From Clostridia bacterium (GTDB lineage Bacteria > Bacillota > Clostridia > TANB77 > UBA1234), in assembly GCA_017469565.1 (NCBI GenBank), contig JAFUGC010000019.1:1-54817 (forward strand): DNA of 54,817 bases, in the 5' to 3' direction. Under the pieces are notes generated by a model. It was not told where the DNA came from. It searched no databases and worked only from the letters and a program-made list of their open reading frames with translations. This document shows, in pieces, positions 1,612 through 54,817 of the stretch (positions are counted from its first letter, which is position 1; each line of letters begins with the position of its first letter). The translations under genes and the position numbers were made by a program.

Positions 1612-1655
1612 GATATGAAAAGTGCCCTCTATAGTAGTGAGGGCACTTTTTTATT
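1612..1655 (-). terminator. bidirectional terminator
   Basis: A perfect 9-bp stem, AGTGCCCTC at 1621-1629 and GAGGGCACT at 1639-1647, is flanked by A- and T-runs. It ends the MerR-VIT operon and overlaps the last codons of that gene. Confidence 0.85.
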
Positions 1656-3984
1656 TAATCCATGATAAAGATCCTGAATAACTATACAAATACCAAATTG
1701 CATCGTCTATCTTTTGTTCTATATTATTATTTTTAATAATATTACTTACTTCGTCTCCTGTAATTATTTTTAACCCTACATTAACTTTTAATCCTGTAAC
1801 TATAATCTTTTTAAATTTATCATCTATTAAGTTTAATAACTTATCTCTATCTACTGTTCCGTCATTTTTCATTAAAGTATATAGTAAACAGATTAACTTC
1901 ATATATAATTCAGAAGATATGATTTCTTGCTTATGATTATTTAAGAATATCAATAACTCTTTATAATTGAATCTAGCATCTATTTTGTGATAATAATATA
2001 AAGAATATAATAAATAAGTTAGTGTTGATTGCTTATCTTTTAATCTAAATATATCATAATAATTATCCACTCGATTTTGTAATAATTCCCTATCAGTCTT
2101 TTCAATAGGCTTTACAGCGAAATCACTTGTTATCTTTTTGTTTCTTCTTAAGAAACCAGGAATTTCTAAATCATTGCAGGTATTCATGAAGGTTGTAGTG
2201 CCAAACGAAATATCTTCACTTTCATAATCTTCTTCAAAGTCCTCACATTCATTTACACCAAGTTTGCTCCACATTTTGTTCAATATTGTTCCTTTTGCAA
2301 ATTTATTACTTAGTATCGTCTCTTGATATTCAGGAACTTCTAATAATTTCTTTTCTCTATCATAAATCGTTATAAATGAAGTATATTTTGAATTAATATT
2401 ATATTTTTCTGATAGTTCAATAATCATTTTTTTATAGTTTTCTTTCTTTTTATCATCATATGTGTTTCTAATATATTCTTCTAACCTTTCTATCTCTTGT
2501 TTTGCAAATAGTACTTCTAAATCAACATTACTCTCATTAATTTCTTCCTTATTAATCTTCCAAACATACTCTTTATTCAATATTTTTCCTTTTAATTGTA
2601 CGTCATCATTTAGTTTTTCTAATTTTGTAAACACATTAAAAAATTCATAATTAAACAAGGTATTTTCTTCTTTTATTTCATCAATTACTATGCTAGAACC
2701 ATAATTAATTTCAACATCTTCTATTAAAGGTGTTTGAATTCTTGCAAATGTTCTTATAATCTTATTGTCTATCTTTTCTTTTGGCTGTATTAGTTCTGCT
2801 TTTCCATTTCCAACTTTCGCTAATTGTTTAATAAAAGCAGAATTGACATTAGTATCTATTCCAAAAGGAAATATTCTACTTTTATTTATGTTTTTTTCAA
2901 CATATCTAATTATTTCATCTTCATTTCCAACTTGTCCATCTGTAAATAATAAAATAATCTTATCTGTTTCCTCCTCATAAAGTGCGAATTTAATTGGATT
3001 TAATATTTCTGTACCACCTAACGGTCTTAAGTTATTAACATACTTTACTGCCTCTTCAAAACTATTCTCATTATACTCAACCGAATTAATATTCATCGCT
3101 TCAAATTCAGATTCAAATGGAATAATATTAAACTTGTCTCCAATATCTAACTGCTTCAAACATTCTATTACTGCATTTTTCGTTTCTTCTATTTTTGCCC
3201 CACTCATTGAGCCAGACACATCAACTATGAATAAATATTCTTTTTCACTGTCTTCATATGTATCTAAGATTTCAGGTATGAAAGATAAATATACCATATC
3301 TTTTCCATCTCTAGTTTTAGAAGTTATGGCTTTTGAAGATAATTCATTTTTTAATTCTATATCTAATTTAAAGTCTTTAGATAAATCATAATTCTGTACT
3401 TCAACTCTTTCTAGTTTCTCATCATCAATTATATTAATTTTATGACTTGAACTAATTATATTTTTTCTATTTAATGCTTTATTCACACTAATATTAAAAT
3501 CTACTGTATAATCCACTTTTCCATAGTTCAATTTACTAGTAATATTGGATTTATATCTAGGTGTAACAAGTGTTGGGAATAAAATTTTAATTGTATTATC
3601 TGTTATTTCAAATTTATCAATATAATGAATTTTTAGTTTTACCTCTTCTCCCTTATCAATTTTACCAACAGAAATTCTAAAAATATTATCTGTTTCCTGC
3701 TCCATCATATAAGCACTATTACCTTTAACGATGTTTTTTTGATATTCTTTTCGAGCTTTTTCTTTCTCTTTACATTTTCCCTTTAACACCTTATCGCCAA
3801 TGATAATTTCAAACCCAACTATAGTTGCAGTTTCTACTATTGGAAATGTATACCCCACCTCCAACACTTTATTGGTATTATTCTTATACTCTTGCTCAAC
3901 TTCAAATGTTCCAAACTTTCCTATTACATTTCCATTAATTCGTACCTTTTTTAATGCTAATTCTCTTAAATCTACATTTTCCAT
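1651..3984 (-). CDS. VIT and von Willebrand factor A domain protein
   Basis: This is a 777-residue protein. Residues about 1-125 form a VIT (vault/inter-alpha-trypsin) domain. A von Willebrand A domain follows at about 246-415 with an intact MIDAS motif, DVSGSMS, and the later LLFTDGQ strand. The C-terminal 350 residues are helical and unrecognised. No signal peptide or membrane segment is seen, so it is probably cytoplasmic. VIT-vWA proteins are thought to mediate metal-dependent protein contacts, and bacterial functions are poorly known. The start is one base after the stop of the MerR gene, so the two are co-transcribed from the MerR-controlled promoter at 4411-4439. The family call is firm and the function is not. 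Confidence 0.85.
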   Translation of the reverse strand: MENVDLRELALKKVRINGNVIGKFGTFEVEQEYKNNTNKVLEVGYTFPIVETATIVGFEIIIGDKVLKGKCKEKEKARKEYQKNIVKGNSAYMMEQETDNIFRISVGKIDKGEEVKLKIHYIDKFEITDNTIKILFPTLVTPRYKSNITSKLNYGKVDYTVDFNISVNKALNRKNIISSSHKINIIDDEKLERVEVQNYDLSKDFKLDIELKNELSSKAITSKTRDGKDMVYLSFIPEILDTYEDSEKEYLFIVDVSGSMSGAKIEETKNAVIECLKQLDIGDKFNIIPFESEFEAMNINSVEYNENSFEEAVKYVNNLRPLGGTEILNPIKFALYEEETDKIILLFTDGQVGNEDEIIRYVEKNINKSRIFPFGIDTNVNSAFIKQLAKVGNGKAELIQPKEKIDNKIIRTFARIQTPLIEDVEINYGSSIVIDEIKEENTLFNYEFFNVFTKLEKLNDDVQLKGKILNKEYVWKINKEEINESNVDLEVLFAKQEIERLEEYIRNTYDDKKKENYKKMIIELSEKYNINSKYTSFITIYDREKKLLEVPEYQETILSNKFAKGTILNKMWSKLGVNECEDFEEDYESEDISFGTTTFMNTCNDLEIPGFLRRNKKITSDFAVKPIEKTDRELLQNRVDNYYDIFRLKDKQSTLTYLLYSLYYYHKIDARFNYKELLIFLNNHKQEIISSELYMKLICLLYTLMKNDGTVDRDKLLNLIDDKFKKIIVTGLKVNVGLKIITGDEVSNIIKNNNIEQKIDDAIWYLYSYSGSLSWIK

Positions 3985-38016: not shown

Positions 38017-40011
38017 CTAATCCTTTATTTTCTGCACATAATCACAAATAATCTCTTGAATTTTCTCATTTCCAATCTCACAATTCAAGCACAAATCATA
38101 ATATTTTTTGTCTCCCCATGGCTGATTAGAAATAACTTCATGATAGGCCGCCCTGGATTTATCAGAATCTAACACATGTCTCTTGGCATCTTTATAAGTA
38201 TCATGATACATTTCCTTTATCTTGCTCACCCTGTATTCCAAAGGAGCATATAAGAAGATTCGAATCAAATGAGAATCGTCCTTCAAAATGTAATCTGAGC
38301 CTCTTCCTACAATCACACAGTTCCCCTCTTCAGCAATCTTGCGTATGGTATCGGCTTGTTTAATAATAGCATCCTTTTCCGCATCTAAGGATAGATAAAA
38401 TTGATATAACTCATCTTCCGTATAATTCTCATCCTTTAGTGCATTTTCAACCGCGTAATTTTTGATAGCTTCCTTATCATAGAATTTCAAATGTAATTTT
38501 TCCGCAACATTTTTCGCAATTTCTTTTCCACCAGTTCCATGTTCACGCGAAATAGAAATAATAATTTTCTGCTCTTGATTAGCCTCTGCCTCTGCATTTC
38601 CTTTACTTTCTACTGCACTGTTACTTGCTAACTCATCAATTGTTTCCACTCTTTCCTGATAAGCCTTTTTCAAAATCAAAACAGAAATCAAGGCTGTCAA
38701 AATCTCTGCAATTGGGAAAGTCCACCAAACAATATCCACCACATTCTCATATCGAGTAAAGAAAAATGCAATTGGAAATACAAATATCACAAGTCTTAAT
38801 AATGAAATGATAAGTGGTCTCAAGGCATATCCTAGTGACTGTAGCACTCCCTGCACCGCCACAGAAAATCCCATAAACACATAACCAATACTTGCAATTC
38901 TAAGTGCAGTGGTGCATGTTACAATAATTTCTGACGTGGTCCCTCCTGCAAGTCCAAATAAGTTGGCAAGTGGTCTTGCAAAGACTTCAAACACACAAGT
39001 TAAAATGAAAGTCACAATAAGCGTATCCACAATACCATATTTGATACAATCATTCACCCTTTCTCTATCCCTCATTCCATAATTAAAAGATAGAATCGAT
39101 ATAATGGTGTTAGATAATCCAAATGCAGAAAACAAAGCAATTTGTTGAATCTTATAATAAATGCCAAAGGAACCAACAAGTACTGTTGGGTCCGCATGAG
39201 CCATACCCAAAATAGCATTCATGCCTGCCATCATCACAGAAAGTAATGCCTGCATTAACGCAGCAGAAATACCAATCTGATAAATTGCCTGAATCAAGTG
39301 AAAATCAGGTTTGATATACTTAGGATTCCCGTTAATCTCTTTATTCAAAAGATAATGGAATATCATTGCAATCCCTAAAGAAACAAACTGTCCAATAATC
39401 GTTGCCCAGGCAGCTCCTGCCACTCCCATATTCAGTGGATAAATAAACACATAATCCAGCACAATATTGGTCACTGCACCTGATATCTGTGCAATAGTAG
39501 AAAGCATTGTTTTTCCAGTAGATTGCAAAAATCTTTCATACACGGTAAACCCAATAGCACCAAGAGAAAAGCAGCAACATATTTGCAAATAAGTTGTTCC
39601 CATCTCCACTACTTCTAAATCATTACCTGCAAATAAACCAATAAACCATCTAGCACCAAAAGCACCAAACAACAAGAAAACAGCAAAGATACATATGCTT
39701 AAGAATATTCCATTGCCTGCTACTTTATTTACTTTTTCTTGATTCTTTTCTCCTAGACTCTTAGAAAGAAGAGCATTTAGTCCTACTCCCGTTCCCACAC
39801 CTATTGCAATAATTAAAATCTGAATAGGAAAGGCAATAGTTAATGCCTGGTTAGCAATGGCTCCCTTCGCTCCCATATTGGTAACAAATATACTGTCAAC
39901 AACATTATATAATGCCTGTAATACCATGGAAATAATCATTGGTAATCCCATTTTCCAAAACAGTTTTTTCATTGGTGTATCTGCCATTTTGTTTGTTTTT
40001 TGTTCATTCAT
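38017..40011 (-). CDS. MATE transporter fused to cytidylate-kinase-like domain
   Basis: This is a 664-residue protein. Residues 1-455 are a MATE-type multidrug/toxin exporter with twelve membrane segments (start MKKLFWKMGLPMIISMVLQA, VDSIFV, FLQSTGKTMLSTIAQISGA). A linker rich in Glu and Gln at about 455-478 follows. Residues 479-664 match the Cytidylate_kin2 family: IIISISREHGTGGKEIA with a P-loop-like turn, then CVIVGRGSDYIL and IRIFLYAPLEYRVSKI. The two domains are in one frame. The kinase half is cytoplasmic and might couple nucleotide state to export, but that is inference. ATG 40011 has AAAAGGAG upstream. Confidence 0.88.
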   Translation of the reverse strand: MNEQKTNKMADTPMKKLFWKMGLPMIISMVLQALYNVVDSIFVTNMGAKGAIANQALTIAFPIQILIIAIGVGTGVGLNALLSKSLGEKNQEKVNKVAGNGIFLSICIFAVFLLFGAFGARWFIGLFAGNDLEVVEMGTTYLQICCCFSLGAIGFTVYERFLQSTGKTMLSTIAQISGAVTNIVLDYVFIYPLNMGVAGAAWATIIGQFVSLGIAMIFHYLLNKEINGNPKYIKPDFHLIQAIYQIGISAALMQALLSVMMAGMNAILGMAHADPTVLVGSFGIYYKIQQIALFSAFGLSNTIISILSFNYGMRDRERVNDCIKYGIVDTLIVTFILTCVFEVFARPLANLFGLAGGTTSEIIVTCTTALRIASIGYVFMGFSVAVQGVLQSLGYALRPLIISLLRLVIFVFPIAFFFTRYENVVDIVWWTFPIAEILTALISVLILKKAYQERVETIDELASNSAVESKGNAEAEANQEQKIIISISREHGTGGKEIAKNVAEKLHLKFYDKEAIKNYAVENALKDENYTEDELYQFYLSLDAEKDAIIKQADTIRKIAEEGNCVIVGRGSDYILKDDSHLIRIFLYAPLEYRVSKIKEMYHDTYKDAKRHVLDSDKSRAAYHEVISNQPWGDKKYYDLCLNCEIGNEKIQEIICDYVQKIKD

Positions 40012-40174
40012 TTTGATAGCTCCTTTTCTTATTTTAGCGCAAAAAATATGTGTAAACCCAAAGTCAATTGGATTTACACATAAAATGCTACTCATTGATT
40101 TTCAACTGTAAAATATCTTAACACTTTTTTGTGAAAAATGTAAGTATTTTTTTCATTTTTTTACCTACTTTTGA

Positions 40175-45416: not shown

Positions 45417-45543
45417 ATAAAAATTTCTCCTTAGTTTTTTGTGTGGAATTATGTCTTATTTCCTGTGACTTTATTATATCATTCCACCTAAAAATGTCAA
45501 TCATATCCAGAACGCATTCAACCCGTTTGTCATGCTTTTAGGG

Positions 45544-45572
45544 ATGCTTTTAGGGACACCTTCCCAAAACAT
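45544..45572. repeat. REP-like hairpin repeat, copy 1
   Basis: This is a variant of the GGGACACCTTCC palindromic repeat found at 53151, 53734 and 54644. A partial copy precedes it at 45531-45543. Confidence 0.75.
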
Positions 45573-45597
45573 CACAAAGCCATTTTCATCTTCCAAT

Positions 45598-46507: not shown

Positions 46508-48310
46508 TTACTTTAAAATATTCTCGATTTCCCTTTGAGAAAGAATTTCTTTTTTCACCAGTTCCTCCGTCAGGCGATTGAGTTTATCCAAATTATTAGA
46601 TATAATCTCCACCGTCTCTTGATAACACTTTCTCATAAATGTTTCCATATCTTCATAAGAACTATTCACAATTAGCTCATCAAACTTTTTGTCATCCGTT
46701 AAAACCATAGAAACATCCGTGGTTCCCTTCATGGAAAATCTCAAAAACATATCCTTAATCATGGTAGAGGCCCTTTTCAAATCATCTGAGGCACCAGCAG
46801 AAACCTCTGAATAAACCACTTCTTCTGCTGCTCTCCCTCCAAGCAAGCATAATATTCTTGTTTTTAACTCTTGAAAGGTGTAATTAGCATCATCATTTTG
46901 CGGTACCAAATTATATCCTGCAGCCTTTCCACGAGGAATGATAGAAATTTCAGAAACCGGATTATTAAAATAATGCGTAACAACCGCATGTCCCGCTTCA
47001 TGAACGGCAGTGCGTTTCAAATTTTCCTTAGAGATAGAGGTAAAGTTATTTTCCGAACCAATCTCAACCTTCCGGAATGCCTCCATTAAAACTTCCTCTG
47101 TAATAAATGTTTCCCCTTTGCGCACGGAAAGAAGAGCCGCTTCATTTAAAATGGTTTTAATATCAGCCCCTGTAAGGCCAGAAGTGATGTCCACAATCCG
47201 GTCAATGTCCAGCGTATCATCCATACACTTATCCTTGGAATAATACTCAATCAGCTTTTTCCTTGCATCTTTGTCTGGTTCATGAATATAAATTTTCCTA
47301 TCAAAGCGCCCGGGTCTCAGTAAAGCCTCATCCAGTGTTCCCACATGGTTTGTGGCAGCAATCACAATCACCCTGCTATCACTTGAAAAACCATCCATAC
47401 AAGCAAGAAGCTGATTCACAATACTTGCTGCATATTTATTCGAATTTTCAGAATATCTTTGCGTTGCAATGGAATCAATTTCATCCAAATAAATGATAGC
47501 AGGTGCATTTTGCTGAGCCTCTTCAAAAATATTCCGAATCCGTTCTTCCGATTCTCCCAAGTATTTTGACTGAAGTTCAGAAGCAGAAGTCTCATAGAAA
47601 GAAACATTTGCCTCACCCGCAATTGCCCTTGCAATATACGTTTTTCCTACACCAGGTTTTCCATATAATAAAATTCCCTTAGGCAGTTGAGCACCAATTT
47701 CTTCATACTTTTCCGGTTCCTTTAGGAACCTAACAATGTCCAAAAAATCATCAATCTGCTTTTCCAGACCAATCACATCAGAAAACTTAATATCTGTAGA
47801 TACCTTTCTTGGCTGATAGTTTCCAAAGGACATTTTAATTTTGGTTGTGATAGCACTTTTATTATCGTCTGATGAATCCGGAACATGACTCTTTTTAGAT
47901 TGCAAAAAGCGTATCAACCATGAAATGCACTTAATGATGATTCTAATGAAAATATTGAGCAGCACTACTTCTATAAAGTATGTAAAGCCATTAACTTCCT
48001 TTGCTGGCACAAAACTTTCATACTCAAAATCCATTTGTGAAAGCGAATAGCCAAACACGTCCTGTTCAAAGTTTTCTAATGAGACAATTCCTAACTGAAA
48101 TGTTGTATTTTCAGAAGTTTGGTGAATTAACGCATATTTTTCAGAATCACAATACTGAATTTTATCAATATCTTTCTCCTCCAATAGTTTCATGAATTGC
48201 GAATAACTTATTTTTTCATAAGTTACTGCCGTTGGCGTTAAAAAAACAGAAAAACAAAAGATAAGTAAAAAAACCAAAATTTCACGTGCCAACCATCTCC
48301 GTCTGTTCAC
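46508..48310 (-). CDS. divergent FtsH-type AAA protease
   Basis: This is a 600-residue membrane AAA/M41 protease. It has a membrane segment at about 10-28 and another near 110-130. Walker A GKPGVGKT is near 220 and Walker B IIYLDEID near 273. The zinc-binding HEAGH is near 437. The pore-loop segment reads SKYLGESEERIRNIF, as in p97/proteasome-type ATPases, instead of the FVGVGASRVR of housekeeping FtsH. The sensor NH...LLRPGRFDRKIYI is present. It degrades membrane or cytosolic proteins, with unknown targets. It starts at GTG with GAGGAGTGATACT. It is probably a paralogue, not the main FtsH. Confidence 0.88.
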   Translation of the reverse strand: MNRRRWLAREILVFLLIFCFSVFLTPTAVTYEKISYSQFMKLLEEKDIDKIQYCDSEKYALIHQTSENTTFQLGIVSLENFEQDVFGYSLSQMDFEYESFVPAKEVNGFTYFIEVVLLNIFIRIIIKCISWLIRFLQSKKSHVPDSSDDNKSAITTKIKMSFGNYQPRKVSTDIKFSDVIGLEKQIDDFLDIVRFLKEPEKYEEIGAQLPKGILLYGKPGVGKTYIARAIAGEANVSFYETSASELQSKYLGESEERIRNIFEEAQQNAPAIIYLDEIDSIATQRYSENSNKYAASIVNQLLACMDGFSSDSRVIVIAATNHVGTLDEALLRPGRFDRKIYIHEPDKDARKKLIEYYSKDKCMDDTLDIDRIVDITSGLTGADIKTILNEAALLSVRKGETFITEEVLMEAFRKVEIGSENNFTSISKENLKRTAVHEAGHAVVTHYFNNPVSEISIIPRGKAAGYNLVPQNDDANYTFQELKTRILCLLGGRAAEEVVYSEVSAGASDDLKRASTMIKDMFLRFSMKGTTDVSMVLTDDKKFDELIVNSSYEDMETFMRKCYQETVEIISNNLDKLNRLTEELVKKEILSQREIENILK

Positions 48311-48821: not shown

Positions 48822-49060
48822 TCACGGATTTTGTATTTTGTCAACTTGGCACTCCAAAACATAATCAACTACCATGTCTATTTTTTCTTTTTGTCGAGAA
48901 GTATAATTCTTGTCCATATTCTCCGCTTCCCACTTCACTACCTCAAATTTTGACTTTTGATATTCTGGCAATTTTTCTTGAATACTCTTATTTTTGATTT
49001 TTCTATTGATAGAATATTCAAGAATCATTAAATTTCCTAACGTATTCTTGTCTATACCGG
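48822..49060 (-). pseudogene. frameshifted C-terminal end of the DUF262/DUF1524 protein
   Basis: This frame carries GIDKNTLGNLMILEYSINR and about 50 further residues, the typical end of a DUF1524 domain. It is one base out of frame with the upstream gene. The +1 shift maps near 49057-49062 (an extra base around CCGG). The joined protein would be about 827 residues. Confidence 0.7.
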
Positions 49061-51306
49061 TCAAACTGATCTTCATTATTTTCCGTTGCATAGATATGTT
49101 CAATGTCAAATTTTCTAGTAAACAACCTTTGATATCTTTGCAGTAACTCCTTGTTATCCTTTGTTTTTGGTTTTTTCAACCTCTCCCTTTCTTTTGCAAT
49201 GACCAAGCAAGCAATCATTTTATTCCACCAAACATTTGCAACATCGGCTTCTAGTTCGCTTGTTAGCACCTCTTCTTCAAGATGCTTTAATTCTTCTTCA
49301 ATCAGATTATTAATTTGGATTGCACTATAATTCTCATCGACAATTTTCACTATGATATCATTGACAAACGTTTTAACAGAATAAATGACTTTTCTGTTCA
49401 CCATAGAATAATATTCAAAATACTTGCTCATATGAATCACAAACCTGTTAAATTCACTATCTATTTTCTGGAATTTCCATAAAAACAAAACGGGTAAGAA
49501 ATCATAAGCACTAGAGTATCTTGTATATCCCCTCAGCATTTTATATGCAAAATAAGTTTCTGCATCCATTTGCTTAACCTCTAATATCATATCTGCAAGT
49601 TTTGCATAAGCTTCATAGATTCTCTGCATTTCTTGAATATTAATACTAATTTCATCAAATCCCTCAAACTGTTTTTGGCTACGATTATCTAATACCTTTA
49701 GAAATAGATTATAATAAAAATTGCTATTTGACATTGTAAATAATTCACTCTTATAACTTGCTTTAGCCTTTCCTTTCTTTTGATTAACCACTTTTGCAAT
49801 CAATATAAATTTATAAACTCTTAAAATGTCATCCTTGGAAAATGTCTCGGAAATCATATTTATTTCAGAAAACTCTGATTTTCCTGCACCCTCACTTTTT
49901 CTAATTGTAGCTTCCTTTTCGATAATTTCACTATTGGTAGTCTCTATTTTATTATATAATTCATTGATAGAACTAACAGCTTCCGCTTCATCCTTGTGAT
50001 TCTTTTTAGCGTATTCATACATTTTTATTTTAAAAATGTCATTTGTTCCTAGCGGCTTTCCTGTTGTATTAAGATTATCAAAGATATTGATTGCTTCATG
50101 CTCTTGTATCTCATTCTTCAAGTTGATAGCAACAACATATGTGTTTTTCAAAATATTTTCTGCAAAGGCTAATTTCTCTTTTTCTGTTGTTATATTAGCA
50201 TCTTCTAATGCTCTTTTTAAATAATAATAATTCACCCCATAAACATTATTATTTCTACTATTTCTAATTTTATCATTCTTCAACTTTGCATTTGAATAAT
50301 TCTCAATTTCCGCTAATTCCTGTTCAAACGACTCTTTATCATTCAAGAAATCTTCAAACTTTCGCTGTTCATTCTCCACCTCTTCATTACTATCCACCTT
50401 TATTTTCAGCATTTTCATAATCTCTTCATCAGAATATGCCTCAGAATACAAATAATTTAAGAGTATGAGTAAGGTAGTAATTCTTTGCTGTCCGTCAATA
50501 ATTTGTTGAAATCCATCTTCTTCTCTAAATTCCATATTTCCCAAAAATACATATTCTTTTTCACCATTATTTAACTGGTTTAATGTTTCAATGAGTTTTG
50601 TAATATTCCTCTCATCCCAATCATAAGGTCTCTGATAAAATGGTACATAATAACGCCTATCCGTACTTAATAACTTCTTTAAATTCATTAACTCAGGAGT
50701 CATTTTTCTATTTAAATTTTGCTCACTACCATAAACTTGCAATTTTAACTGTTTCTTGTCTTCTTCCGCCTGTTTTTCATCTTCTGCGGAATCAATCACA
50801 CAGTTTACAGCTGGTAGATTACGATATTTTTCATCCAAATCCATCCCATATCCTATCACAAAACGATTAGGAATGATAAATCCAACATAATCCACATTAA
50901 CATCAGAAACAACTCTTCTCTCAGGTTTATCTAAGAATGCACATAACTTTAAACTATTCGGCTTTTGCTCCCTTAAATAATCAAGCACAAAAGATAAGGT
51001 ACGCCCTGAGTCTATAATATCTTCAACAACAAGCACATCTTTCCCTGTCACAAGTTCATCTAATCCTACCTTAAACTCAATCTTTTCCGTACTATTTTCT
51101 CCTTGATAACTGGACACTCTTATAAACTCCGTTTGGGTATCTAGCTTAATTTTTCTTGACAAATCCGCAAAGAAATATACGGAACCTTTTAATATACTAA
51201 TCAGTGTAAGTTCCTTTCCTTCATAATCTTTCGTGATTTCTTCTGCCATCTGACAAACCCTACTCGCAATCATTTCTTCATCAATTAGTTCTATCATTTT
51301 CTTCAT
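49018..51306 (-). CDS. hypoxanthine phosphoribosyltransferase fused to DUF262/DUF1524 GmrSD-like protein
   Basis: This is one continuous frame of 762 residues. Residues 1-175 are a complete purine phosphoribosyltransferase: LTLISILKGSVYFFADL, the PRPP loop VVEDIIDSGRTLS, and IPNRFVIGYGMDLDEKYRNL. A charged linker at about 176-205 follows. Then comes DUF262 (PFYQRPYDWDERN, IIDGQQRITTLLIL), the NTP-handling half of GmrSD-type restriction enzymes, and near 730 the DUF1524 HNH start FDIEHIYA. The end is cut by a frameshift, so the nuclease may be damaged. ATG 51306 has AAAGGTGG 7 nt upstream. GmrSD, BrxU and SspE relatives defend against phage; the fusion with Hpt is not one I know. Confidence 0.85.
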   Translation of the reverse strand: MKKMIELIDEEMIASRVCQMAEEITKDYEGKELTLISILKGSVYFFADLSRKIKLDTQTEFIRVSSYQGENSTEKIEFKVGLDELVTGKDVLVVEDIIDSGRTLSFVLDYLREQKPNSLKLCAFLDKPERRVVSDVNVDYVGFIIPNRFVIGYGMDLDEKYRNLPAVNCVIDSAEDEKQAEEDKKQLKLQVYGSEQNLNRKMTPELMNLKKLLSTDRRYYVPFYQRPYDWDERNITKLIETLNQLNNGEKEYVFLGNMEFREEDGFQQIIDGQQRITTLLILLNYLYSEAYSDEEIMKMLKIKVDSNEEVENEQRKFEDFLNDKESFEQELAEIENYSNAKLKNDKIRNSRNNNVYGVNYYYLKRALEDANITTEKEKLAFAENILKNTYVVAINLKNEIQEHEAINIFDNLNTTGKPLGTNDIFKIKMYEYAKKNHKDEAEAVSSINELYNKIETTNSEIIEKEATIRKSEGAGKSEFSEINMISETFSKDDILRVYKFILIAKVVNQKKGKAKASYKSELFTMSNSNFYYNLFLKVLDNRSQKQFEGFDEISINIQEMQRIYEAYAKLADMILEVKQMDAETYFAYKMLRGYTRYSSAYDFLPVLFLWKFQKIDSEFNRFVIHMSKYFEYYSMVNRKVIYSVKTFVNDIIVKIVDENYSAIQINNLIEEELKHLEEEVLTSELEADVANVWWNKMIACLVIAKERERLKKPKTKDNKELLQRYQRLFTRKFDIEHIYATENNEDQFDRYRQEYVRKFNDS

Positions 51307-51371
51307 AAGACACCCACCTTTCTCAGCTTTTAATATATTATAATATATTGTCCCCTTTAAGTCCATCTGAG

Positions 51372-51403
51372 CAAAAAAAATCCATGCATTTCTGCACGGA
51401 TAT
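51372..51403 (-). terminator. terminator of the 111-residue protein gene
   Basis: TCCATGCA (51381-51388) pairs with TGCACGGA (51393-51400) apart from one mismatch, followed by TTTTTTTT on the minus strand. Confidence 0.85.
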
Positions 51404-53733: not shown

Positions 53734-53762
53734 ATGCTTTTGGGGACACCTTCCAAAAGCAT
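53734..53762. repeat. REP-like hairpin repeat, copy 3
   Basis: This is identical to copy 2, overlapping the last base of the RAYT transposase stop region. A partial copy (CTTTTGGGGA) precedes it at 53723-53732. Confidence 0.9.
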
Positions 53763-54529
53763 CATTCTTCCTTATTTTTTACCATAGAATTCAGCAAACC
53801 TCTTGGCATTTCAAGATAATCTCTTATTTCTTTATAAGATAGATTACATTCATTTTTCAAAAAGAATATTAATTTCTTTAAAACAGTCCTTTCACTAAAT
53901 ATTTGAAGCAAATCCCAGTTTGATCTTTTTACAAATTCTGCGATACCACTAATAATATAGTCTTCCACTTCACTACTGCCCTCACAGTCGATAAACTTTC
54001 TATCATAAGTACCTTCAAAAAGTTCTACATAGTTACATTCTGTTCCAAAAATCTCTTTTAAAATATGATTATTTGCCACTCCAACATTGTGTACATATTC
54101 ATTATACGAAGAATACGGGTAATCTTCGCATTTACTTACCATTTTGGCCTTTACAGGATTATTATGAATATATTTTATACAATTCTTTAGATGTGAATTG
54201 TCATATATCGGCTCCACTTGATACCTATTTCTAAAAACAACGCCACATCTATTCTTTTCCTTATTATATTTTAGAGCAAATTTCAGATTATTCTTATGCA
54301 TATACTTTTCAAAGCTATCAAAATCATTAATCCAAAATAAAAAATGAGCATGATTATTCATCATACAATAAGCCAGCAGCACAAATTGTTCATCCGATTT
54401 TCCTTCCTTCATATATTGTAAATATGTTTTTAGATATTTTTCTTCATCAAAAATATATTCCTTATTGATTCCTTGTACCATAACATGAATATAAGGTGTA
54501 TTTAAATCTTTTCTTGCTTTTCTTGGCAT
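53762..54529 (-). CDS. REP-associated tyrosine transposase (RAYT)
   Basis: This is a 255-residue protein of the Y1 HUH single-strand transposase group. It has YIHVMVQGINKEYIF at the N-terminus and the metal-binding HAHFLFW near 80. The tyrosine region NCIKYIHNNPVKAKMV follows near 140, as in RAYTs. The C-terminal 100 residues include a helix-turn-helix-like NLSYKEIRDYLEMPRG. RAYTs move REP hairpins. Matching hairpins border the gene on both sides (53734 and, inverted, 54644). AGGAGGTAATT precedes the ATG. Confidence 0.9.
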   Translation of the reverse strand: MPRKARKDLNTPYIHVMVQGINKEYIFDEEKYLKTYLQYMKEGKSDEQFVLLAYCMMNNHAHFLFWINDFDSFEKYMHKNNLKFALKYNKEKNRCGVVFRNRYQVEPIYDNSHLKNCIKYIHNNPVKAKMVSKCEDYPYSSYNEYVHNVGVANNHILKEIFGTECNYVELFEGTYDRKFIDCEGSSEVEDYIISGIAEFVKRSNWDLLQIFSERTVLKKLIFFLKNECNLSYKEIRDYLEMPRGLLNSMVKNKEE

Positions 54530-54590: not shown

Positions 54591-54643
54591 GTATTTTATC
54601 ACATAATAGTTCTTTTATCAAGTGTTACTTTTTAATGTGCTGA

Positions 54644-54670
54644 TGTTTTTGGAAGGTGTCCCCAAAAACA
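54644..54670. repeat. REP-like hairpin repeat, copy 4, inverted
   Basis: Arms TGTTTTTGG/CCAAAAACA flank AAGGTGTCC. It is in inverted orientation relative to copies 2 and 3, and directly abuts the stop of the partial gene at 54671. Confidence 0.9.
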
Positions 54671-54817
54671 CTAGCCTTTTCTTGCAGTAATACCATAGTA
54701 CCTTCTCAGTAACCTGATTCCCTGTTTGTATGTATTTCTTACAATATATTTTTCTAATTTGTCCATATCTATTCCTTTTTGATAGTATTCTTTATGATCT
54801 CTTTCTTCTTCCGAAAA
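54671..54817 (-). CDS. C-terminal end of an unidentified gene (5' part beyond window)
   Basis: The last 48 codons end at TAG 54671-54673. They are basic and helical (KLEKYIVRNTYKQGIRLL, then RRYYGITARKG). No family is recognised. The fragment runs off the right edge. Confidence 0.55.
   Translation of the reverse strand, partial: FSEEERDHKEYYQKGIDMDKLEKYIVRNTYKQGIRLLRRYYGITARKG

What the first reader, a model, noticed from the sequence alone, without database searches (positions are those of the whole stretch)
48822..51306. Hypoxanthine phosphoribosyltransferase fused to a GmrSD-like DUF262/DUF1524 protein
A full Hpt domain with PRPP loop DIIDSGRT is in one frame with DUF262 (YQRPYDW, IDGQQR) and the DUF1524 start DIEHI. 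DUF262/DUF1524 proteins restrict phage DNA with modified bases, using an NTP. A purine-salvage domain joined to such a protein could sense or supply nucleotides, or act as a nucleotide-depleting effector. I know of no described system with this layout. This is the strongest candidate for something new in the window.
Basis: partly seen in the sequence, partly recalled or inferred. Interest (0 to 1): 0.85.

Follow-up and report, generated by a model that had tools for sequence, protein, structure and literature searches.

The report
One-off hpt–GmrSD gene fusion, nuclease broken
A purine-recycling enzyme gene runs in one frame into a phage-defence-type (GmrSD-like) gene whose DNA-cutting end is knocked out of frame; no other genome checked has the pair joined, so it is most likely a single accidental, decaying fusion rather than a new defence system.

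Summary
One minus-strand ORF (51306→49018, 762 aa) carries a complete Hpt domain (residues 1-171), a ~30-residue charged linker, and a GmrSD_N/DUF262 domain with its helical body up to DIEHI. The zero frame stops 24 residues after DIEHI, and the rest of DUF1524 (GNLMILEYSINR…) lies in the +1 frame (48822-49112). Against the three closest relatives the window carries 4 extra bases near 49057-49064, so the nuclease motif is cut. The fusion looks private to this assembly. The closest DUF262/DUF1524 relatives (57-60% identical, three Clostridia MAGs) are stand-alone proteins of 632-642 aa. About 80 hpt genes examined are stand-alone, and every other DUF262 ORF whose domain could be placed begins with DUF262. 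Searches of several hundred genomes each at order, class and phylum level, plus plasmids and phages, found no second case. The Hpt half keeps 27 of 28 near-invariant residues and is the only Hpt found in this 90%-complete genome. Best reading: a working salvage enzyme carrying a captured, probably dead restriction gene as a tail. A nucleotide-sensing defence protein is not excluded but has no comparative support. An assembly error at either join cannot be tested here.

The parts
50794..51306 (-). Hpt domain (hypoxanthine phosphoribosyltransferase), residues 1-171, catalytic residues intact
   Evidence: TIGR01203 185.5 bits over the 150 cutoff; PF00156; 27 of 28 near-invariant columns kept among 81 other Hpts
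50704..50793 (-). linker, about residues 172-201 (DSAEDEKQAEEDKKQLKLQVYGSEQNLNRK and flanks); possibly an old hpt tail plus a read-through intergenic stretch (inference)
   Evidence: absent from stand-alone Hpts, whose tails are at most 18 aa; DUF262 homologs start within it; DNA unique in the genome
49093..50703 (-). GmrSD_N (DUF262) domain and helical body, motifs QR, DGQQR and FxxxN intact, up to and including DIEHI
   Evidence: PF03235 E=5e-30; 57-60% identity to L039-L041; model matches SspE, DndI and BrxU
49018..49092 (-). end of the zero frame after DIEHI, out of register with homologs from about 49064
49057..49064 (-). site of the frame break: 4 extra bases relative to three homologs
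   Evidence: DNA alignment
48822..49112 (-). rest of DUF1524/GmrSD_C in the +1 frame (GNLMILEYSINRKI...)
   Evidence: PF07510 E=1.4e-7; PADLOC HEC-06/Orf5 C-terminal matches
51337..51365 (-). promoter-like site TGGACT-17-TATAAT upstream of the gene (consensus match only)
51380..51401 (-). terminator-like hairpin separating the gene from the ORF upstream (consensus match only)

Best explanation
This is a chance, lineage-private gene fusion. A stand-alone GmrSD-like (DUF262/DUF1524) restriction-type gene, of a subfamily otherwise seen as separate ~640-aa proteins in related Clostridia, came to lie directly behind hpt, and the short space between them is read through in frame. The Hpt half most likely still makes IMP/GMP from hypoxanthine/guanine and PRPP and serves as the cell's salvage enzyme. 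The DUF262 half keeps its nucleotide-binding motifs but has lost the DUF1524 nuclease through a small insertion that shifts the frame, so it probably no longer cuts DNA. Shown: one frame, domain content, frame break, absence of other fusions in the searched sets. Inferred: enzyme activity, loss of restriction, order of events.
For: The DUF262/DUF1524 homologs closest to the window are stand-alone (L039, L040, L041). Of the Hpts pulled from the order and phylum searches, 81 were aligned and none has more than an 18-aa tail. In all other DUF262 ORFs with a placed N-terminal domain it starts within the first 78 residues, against 239 in the stop-to-stop frame of the window ORF, and no other piece carries a full Hpt. 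The frame break removes the GN…INR part of the His-Me motif; mutating the metal-binding Asn or the catalytic His in TgvB abolishes phage protection (PMC11411939). The +1 frame downstream is still intact, so the break is recent. Hpt catalytic residues are intact and this is the only Hpt found in the genome. The gene has its own promoter-like and terminator-like flanks. MetRS on the same contig is 77% identical to the genus, so the contig as a whole is not foreign.
Against: The DUF262 half is about 560 residues without a stop, and some defence proteins work with DUF262 and no DUF1524 (Menshen, Dazbog, PD-T4-2: PMC10952713; TgvA, with its partner TgvB: PMC11411939), so loss of the nuclease does not prove loss of function. 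The Hpt has the second longest terminal branch of 82, which could reflect a changed role. Only part of known diversity was searched, and a species-level relative may exist outside the sets.
Confidence: 0.58

Rival explanations
1. Assembly artefact: the hpt gene and a DUF262 gene, or two strains, were wrongly joined in this draft genome, and/or the 4-base insertion is an assembly error.
For: The genome is a draft in 53 contigs, 89.6% complete with 3.6% contamination; the fusion is unique; the 12 other family members searched lack a true hpt.
Against: The join is in frame, keeps both domain ends whole, and lies in DNA with no repeat in the genome. GC3 of Hpt, linker and DUF262 is the same, 0.28 each. 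The frame break is 4 bases in a non-homopolymer stretch, unlike a common base-count error.
Confidence: 0.2
2. A working nuclease-less Hpt-DUF262 protein: the Hpt domain senses or supplies purine nucleotides (or PRPP) and gates the DUF262 NTPase as a defence or regulatory switch.
For: Both ligand sites keep their motifs. DUF262 proteins are NTP-driven sensors (PMC10952713) and some defence proteins have no DUF1524. PRTase domains are proposed to make or sense nucleotides in conflict systems (PMC5512222). The Hpt branch is long.
Against: No second example in any searched set, and no recognised partner gene: the 109-aa and 115-aa neighbours match no Pfam family.
Confidence: 0.12
3. An intact three-domain enzyme in the living population: the frame break is an assembly error or a minority allele, and Hpt-DUF262-DUF1524 is a type IV restriction enzyme with a nucleotide-supplying head.
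For: The +1 frame continues DUF1524 cleanly to its own stop with PF07510 at E=1.4e-7.
Against: The break is 4 bases, not a homopolymer slip; no relative carries the head.
Confidence: 0.1

Closest known systems
Hypoxanthine-guanine phosphoribosyltransferase (TIGR01203; e.g. PDB 3o7m, 2geb, 1r3u)
   Same: whole domain, active-site motifs, length and register; E=2e-45 to solved bacterial Hpts
   Different: carries a ~590-residue C-terminal tail; longest tail in the compared Hpts is 18 aa; long branch
GmrSD family / HEC-06-type single-chain type IV restriction proteins (PF03235 + PF07510)
   Same: DUF262 with QR, DGQQR and FxxxN, helical body, DIEH start of DUF1524; 57-60% identity to L039-L041; PADLOC HEC-06 E=3e-24
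   Different: N-terminal Hpt; DUF1524 split over two frames
SspE, DndI and BrxU (PDB 7drs, 9jfl, 7p9k)
   Same: fold of the DUF262 half: Foldseek E=1e-7 to SspE, VIA-align Z 13.8/13.0/7.6
   Different: 12-14% identity; the nuclease end is lost in the window protein; no family hit of a phosphorothioation or BREX gene among the neighbours scanned
PRTase domains in phage/plasmid polyvalent proteins (PMC5512222)
   Same: a PRTase joined to conflict-related domains
   Different: those are described as a distinct PRTase group; the window domain is an ordinary housekeeping-type Hpt by TIGR01203

Membership tests
HGPRTase (TIGR01203) | score above the curated cutoff and intact PRPP, PPi and base-binding residues | tested here: met
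   185.5 against 150 bits; 27 of 28 near-invariant residues kept, sole departure L to V at 107
HGPRTase (TIGR01203) | catalytic activity on hypoxanthine/guanine with PRPP | not testable with these tools
   needs an assay or complementation
GmrSD (type IV restriction) | DUF262/GmrS domain with QR, DGQQR and FxxxN motifs | tested here: met
   PF03235 E=5e-30; YQRPYDW, IDGQQR, IFDNLN in the sequence; motif definition PMC11411939
GmrSD (type IV restriction) | DUF1524/GmrD with complete D/E-H-N-N nuclease motif in the same protein | tested here: not met
   zero frame ends 24 residues after DIEHI; both Asn positions lie in the +1 frame; motif definition PMC4619093
GmrSD (type IV restriction) | NTP-stimulated cleavage of modified DNA | not testable with these tools
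   needs protein and modified phage DNA
SspE/DndI/BrxU fold | same overall fold of the DUF262 half | tested here: met
   Foldseek prob 1.00, E 1e-7 to 1e-5 for SspE/DndI; Z 13.8 over 448 residues but rmsd 12.8, so relative domain placement differs
A conserved Hpt-DUF262 fusion family | same architecture in other genomes | tested here: not met
   none

The most novel reading that the evidence does not exclude
A purine-salvage enzyme was co-opted as the sensing head of a GmrSD-type protein: hypoxanthine/guanine or PRPP levels, which shift when a phage breaks down or drains nucleotides, gate the DUF262 NTPase in a nuclease-less defence switch.
Probability: 0.07. Interest if true: 0.75.

Novelty: new variant of a known kind. 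Interest (0 to 1): 0.2.

Why it matters
If it were a conserved working protein, it would link purine salvage directly to a type IV restriction sensor. As the evidence stands, it is an example of how an accessory defence gene can land behind a household gene, become a tail on it and start to decay, and a caution against reading a single fusion in a draft genome as a new system.

Tried and rejected
Hpt fusions suggested by large 'open_frame_aa' values in the order search (G599, G639, G746, G682, G544, G485, G611 and others): the ORFs were read and all Hpts are 169-189 aa, so these were not fusions. Conserved hpt-ftsH operon as the explanation of the locus: hpt and ftsH are neighbours in family f2 (G013, G017, G021), but the window FtsH is a divergent second copy whose relatives in G012 and G002 have no hpt beside them. 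Contig contamination: rejected, since MetRS is 77% identical to the genus. A programmed frameshift was considered and not favoured: no slippery run or prfB-like site was seen in the sequence, and the homologs are single-frame. Viral origin: no DUF262 relative in IMG/VR, one ordinary viral Hpt and no copy of the junction DNA. The structure model of the Hpt half is unreliable because too few Hpt sequences could be put in the alignment (pLDDT about 35); only the DUF262 half is used.

Full report
What is there. On the minus strand an ORF runs from 51366 to 49018; the likely start is the ATG at 51306 behind AAAGGTGGG, giving 762 aa. Residues 7-169 match TIGR01203 HGPRTase at 185.5 bits (cutoff 150), and residues 209-426 match PF03235 GmrSD_N at E=5e-30. 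PADLOC models of GmrSD-like proteins (HEC-06, Orf5, SspE) also match the second half. The DIEH start of the DUF1524 nuclease is in the same frame, but the frame ends 24 residues after DIEHI. The rest of DUF1524 is in the +1 frame, 48822-49112, with its own PF07510 match. Aligned with the three closest homologs, the window has 4 extra bases at about 49057-49064.

Is the fusion shared? The nearest DUF262/DUF1524 proteins in a scan of about 85,000 genomes are 57-60% identical (L039, L040, L041). All three are stand-alone proteins of 632, 639 and 642 aa. More distant relatives in Bacteroidota and Cloacimonadota are stand-alone or cut by a contig end. L041 is followed by a type III restriction-modification pair and L039 has WYL and AAA neighbours, in keeping with a defence role of the subfamily. 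Whole-protein searches of 57 relatives, 385 order-level and 398 phylum-level genomes returned no second fusion. A class-level search with GmrSD_N over 391 genomes gave 96 genomes with hits. The 30 best loci and 12 further ones, most with long frames, were scanned with an Hpt profile: none carries Hpt, and in every ORF where the N-terminal domain could be placed DUF262 begins within the first 78 residues, against 239 in the stop-to-stop frame of the window ORF. No Hpt tail longer than 18 aa was found among the aligned Hpts. Plasmid and phage collections and IMG/VR gave none.

Is it an error? The contig belongs to the genus (MetRS 77% identical to two genus members). The join DNA occurs once in the genome, GC3 is 0.28 across Hpt, linker and DUF262, and both domain ends are whole and in frame. 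These points make a chimeric join unlikely but do not exclude it, since no reads are at hand. The 4-base difference is not a homopolymer slip.

What the halves can do. The Hpt half keeps 27 of 28 near-invariant residues among 81 other Hpts, and it is the only Hpt found in the genome. Of the 12 other genomes of its family, 11 hit the profile only weakly, through short or distant phosphoribosyltransferases, and one has no hit. Hence a household salvage role is likely. The branch to the window Hpt is the second longest of 82, which may mean horizontal origin, relaxed constraint or a changed role. The DUF262 half keeps the three motifs named for the family (PMC11411939; PMC4619093). Its model, confident only for this half, matches SspE, DndI and BrxU. 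The His-Me nuclease needs Asn residues beyond the break, and in TgvB mutation of the metal-binding Asn or the catalytic His abolishes protection (PMC11411939). The broken window protein should therefore not cut DNA. Nuclease-free DUF262 defence proteins do exist (PMC10952713), so a function is not excluded.

Mechanism committed to. A GmrSD-like gene landed behind hpt and is read through from it. The salvage enzyme stays active, while the restriction half is a passenger that has begun to decay. Shown: frame, domains, break, lack of relatives with the fusion. Inferred: activity of Hpt, inactivity of the rest, order of events. Confidence 0.58. Rivals: assembly artefact 0.20, nuclease-less switch 0.12, intact three-domain enzyme hidden by an assembly error 0.10.

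Literature. No paper in the library was found that joins DUF262 or GmrSD with a phosphoribosyltransferase in one system. A 2025 survey of ParB-fold domain fusions does not mention phosphoribosyltransferase or DUF262 in its main text (PMC12704722). PRTase domains in phage and plasmid polyvalent proteins form a different PRTase group (PMC5512222).

Noticed in passing
window 53762-54529 (-); repeats near 45532-45578, 53735-53771, 54641-54671: An IS200-like Y1 transposase (PF01797) with short palindromic repeats of about 30-45 bp that recur many times over the genome's contigs (C18, C41, C51 and others), like a REP/RAYT family.
   Followed up: partly
window 46508-48310 (-): A divergent second FtsH-type protease, 56% identical to a copy in G012 and 49% to one in G002, below the FtsH equivalog cutoff (458 against 600 bits); only some family members carry it.
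   Followed up: partly
window 38017-40095 (-): MATE efflux transporter with a C-terminal cytidylate-kinase-like domain in one ORF.
   Followed up: no
family f1 genomes (G001-G012): None has a true TIGR01203 hpt; several carry a 158-163 aa XGPRT-like phosphoribosyltransferase instead, which was not found in the window's own genome.
   Followed up: partly
window 1651-3984 (-): A 777-aa protein matching 'marine proteobacterial sortase target protein' below cutoff (292 against 552 bits), unexpected in a clostridial genome.
   Followed up: no
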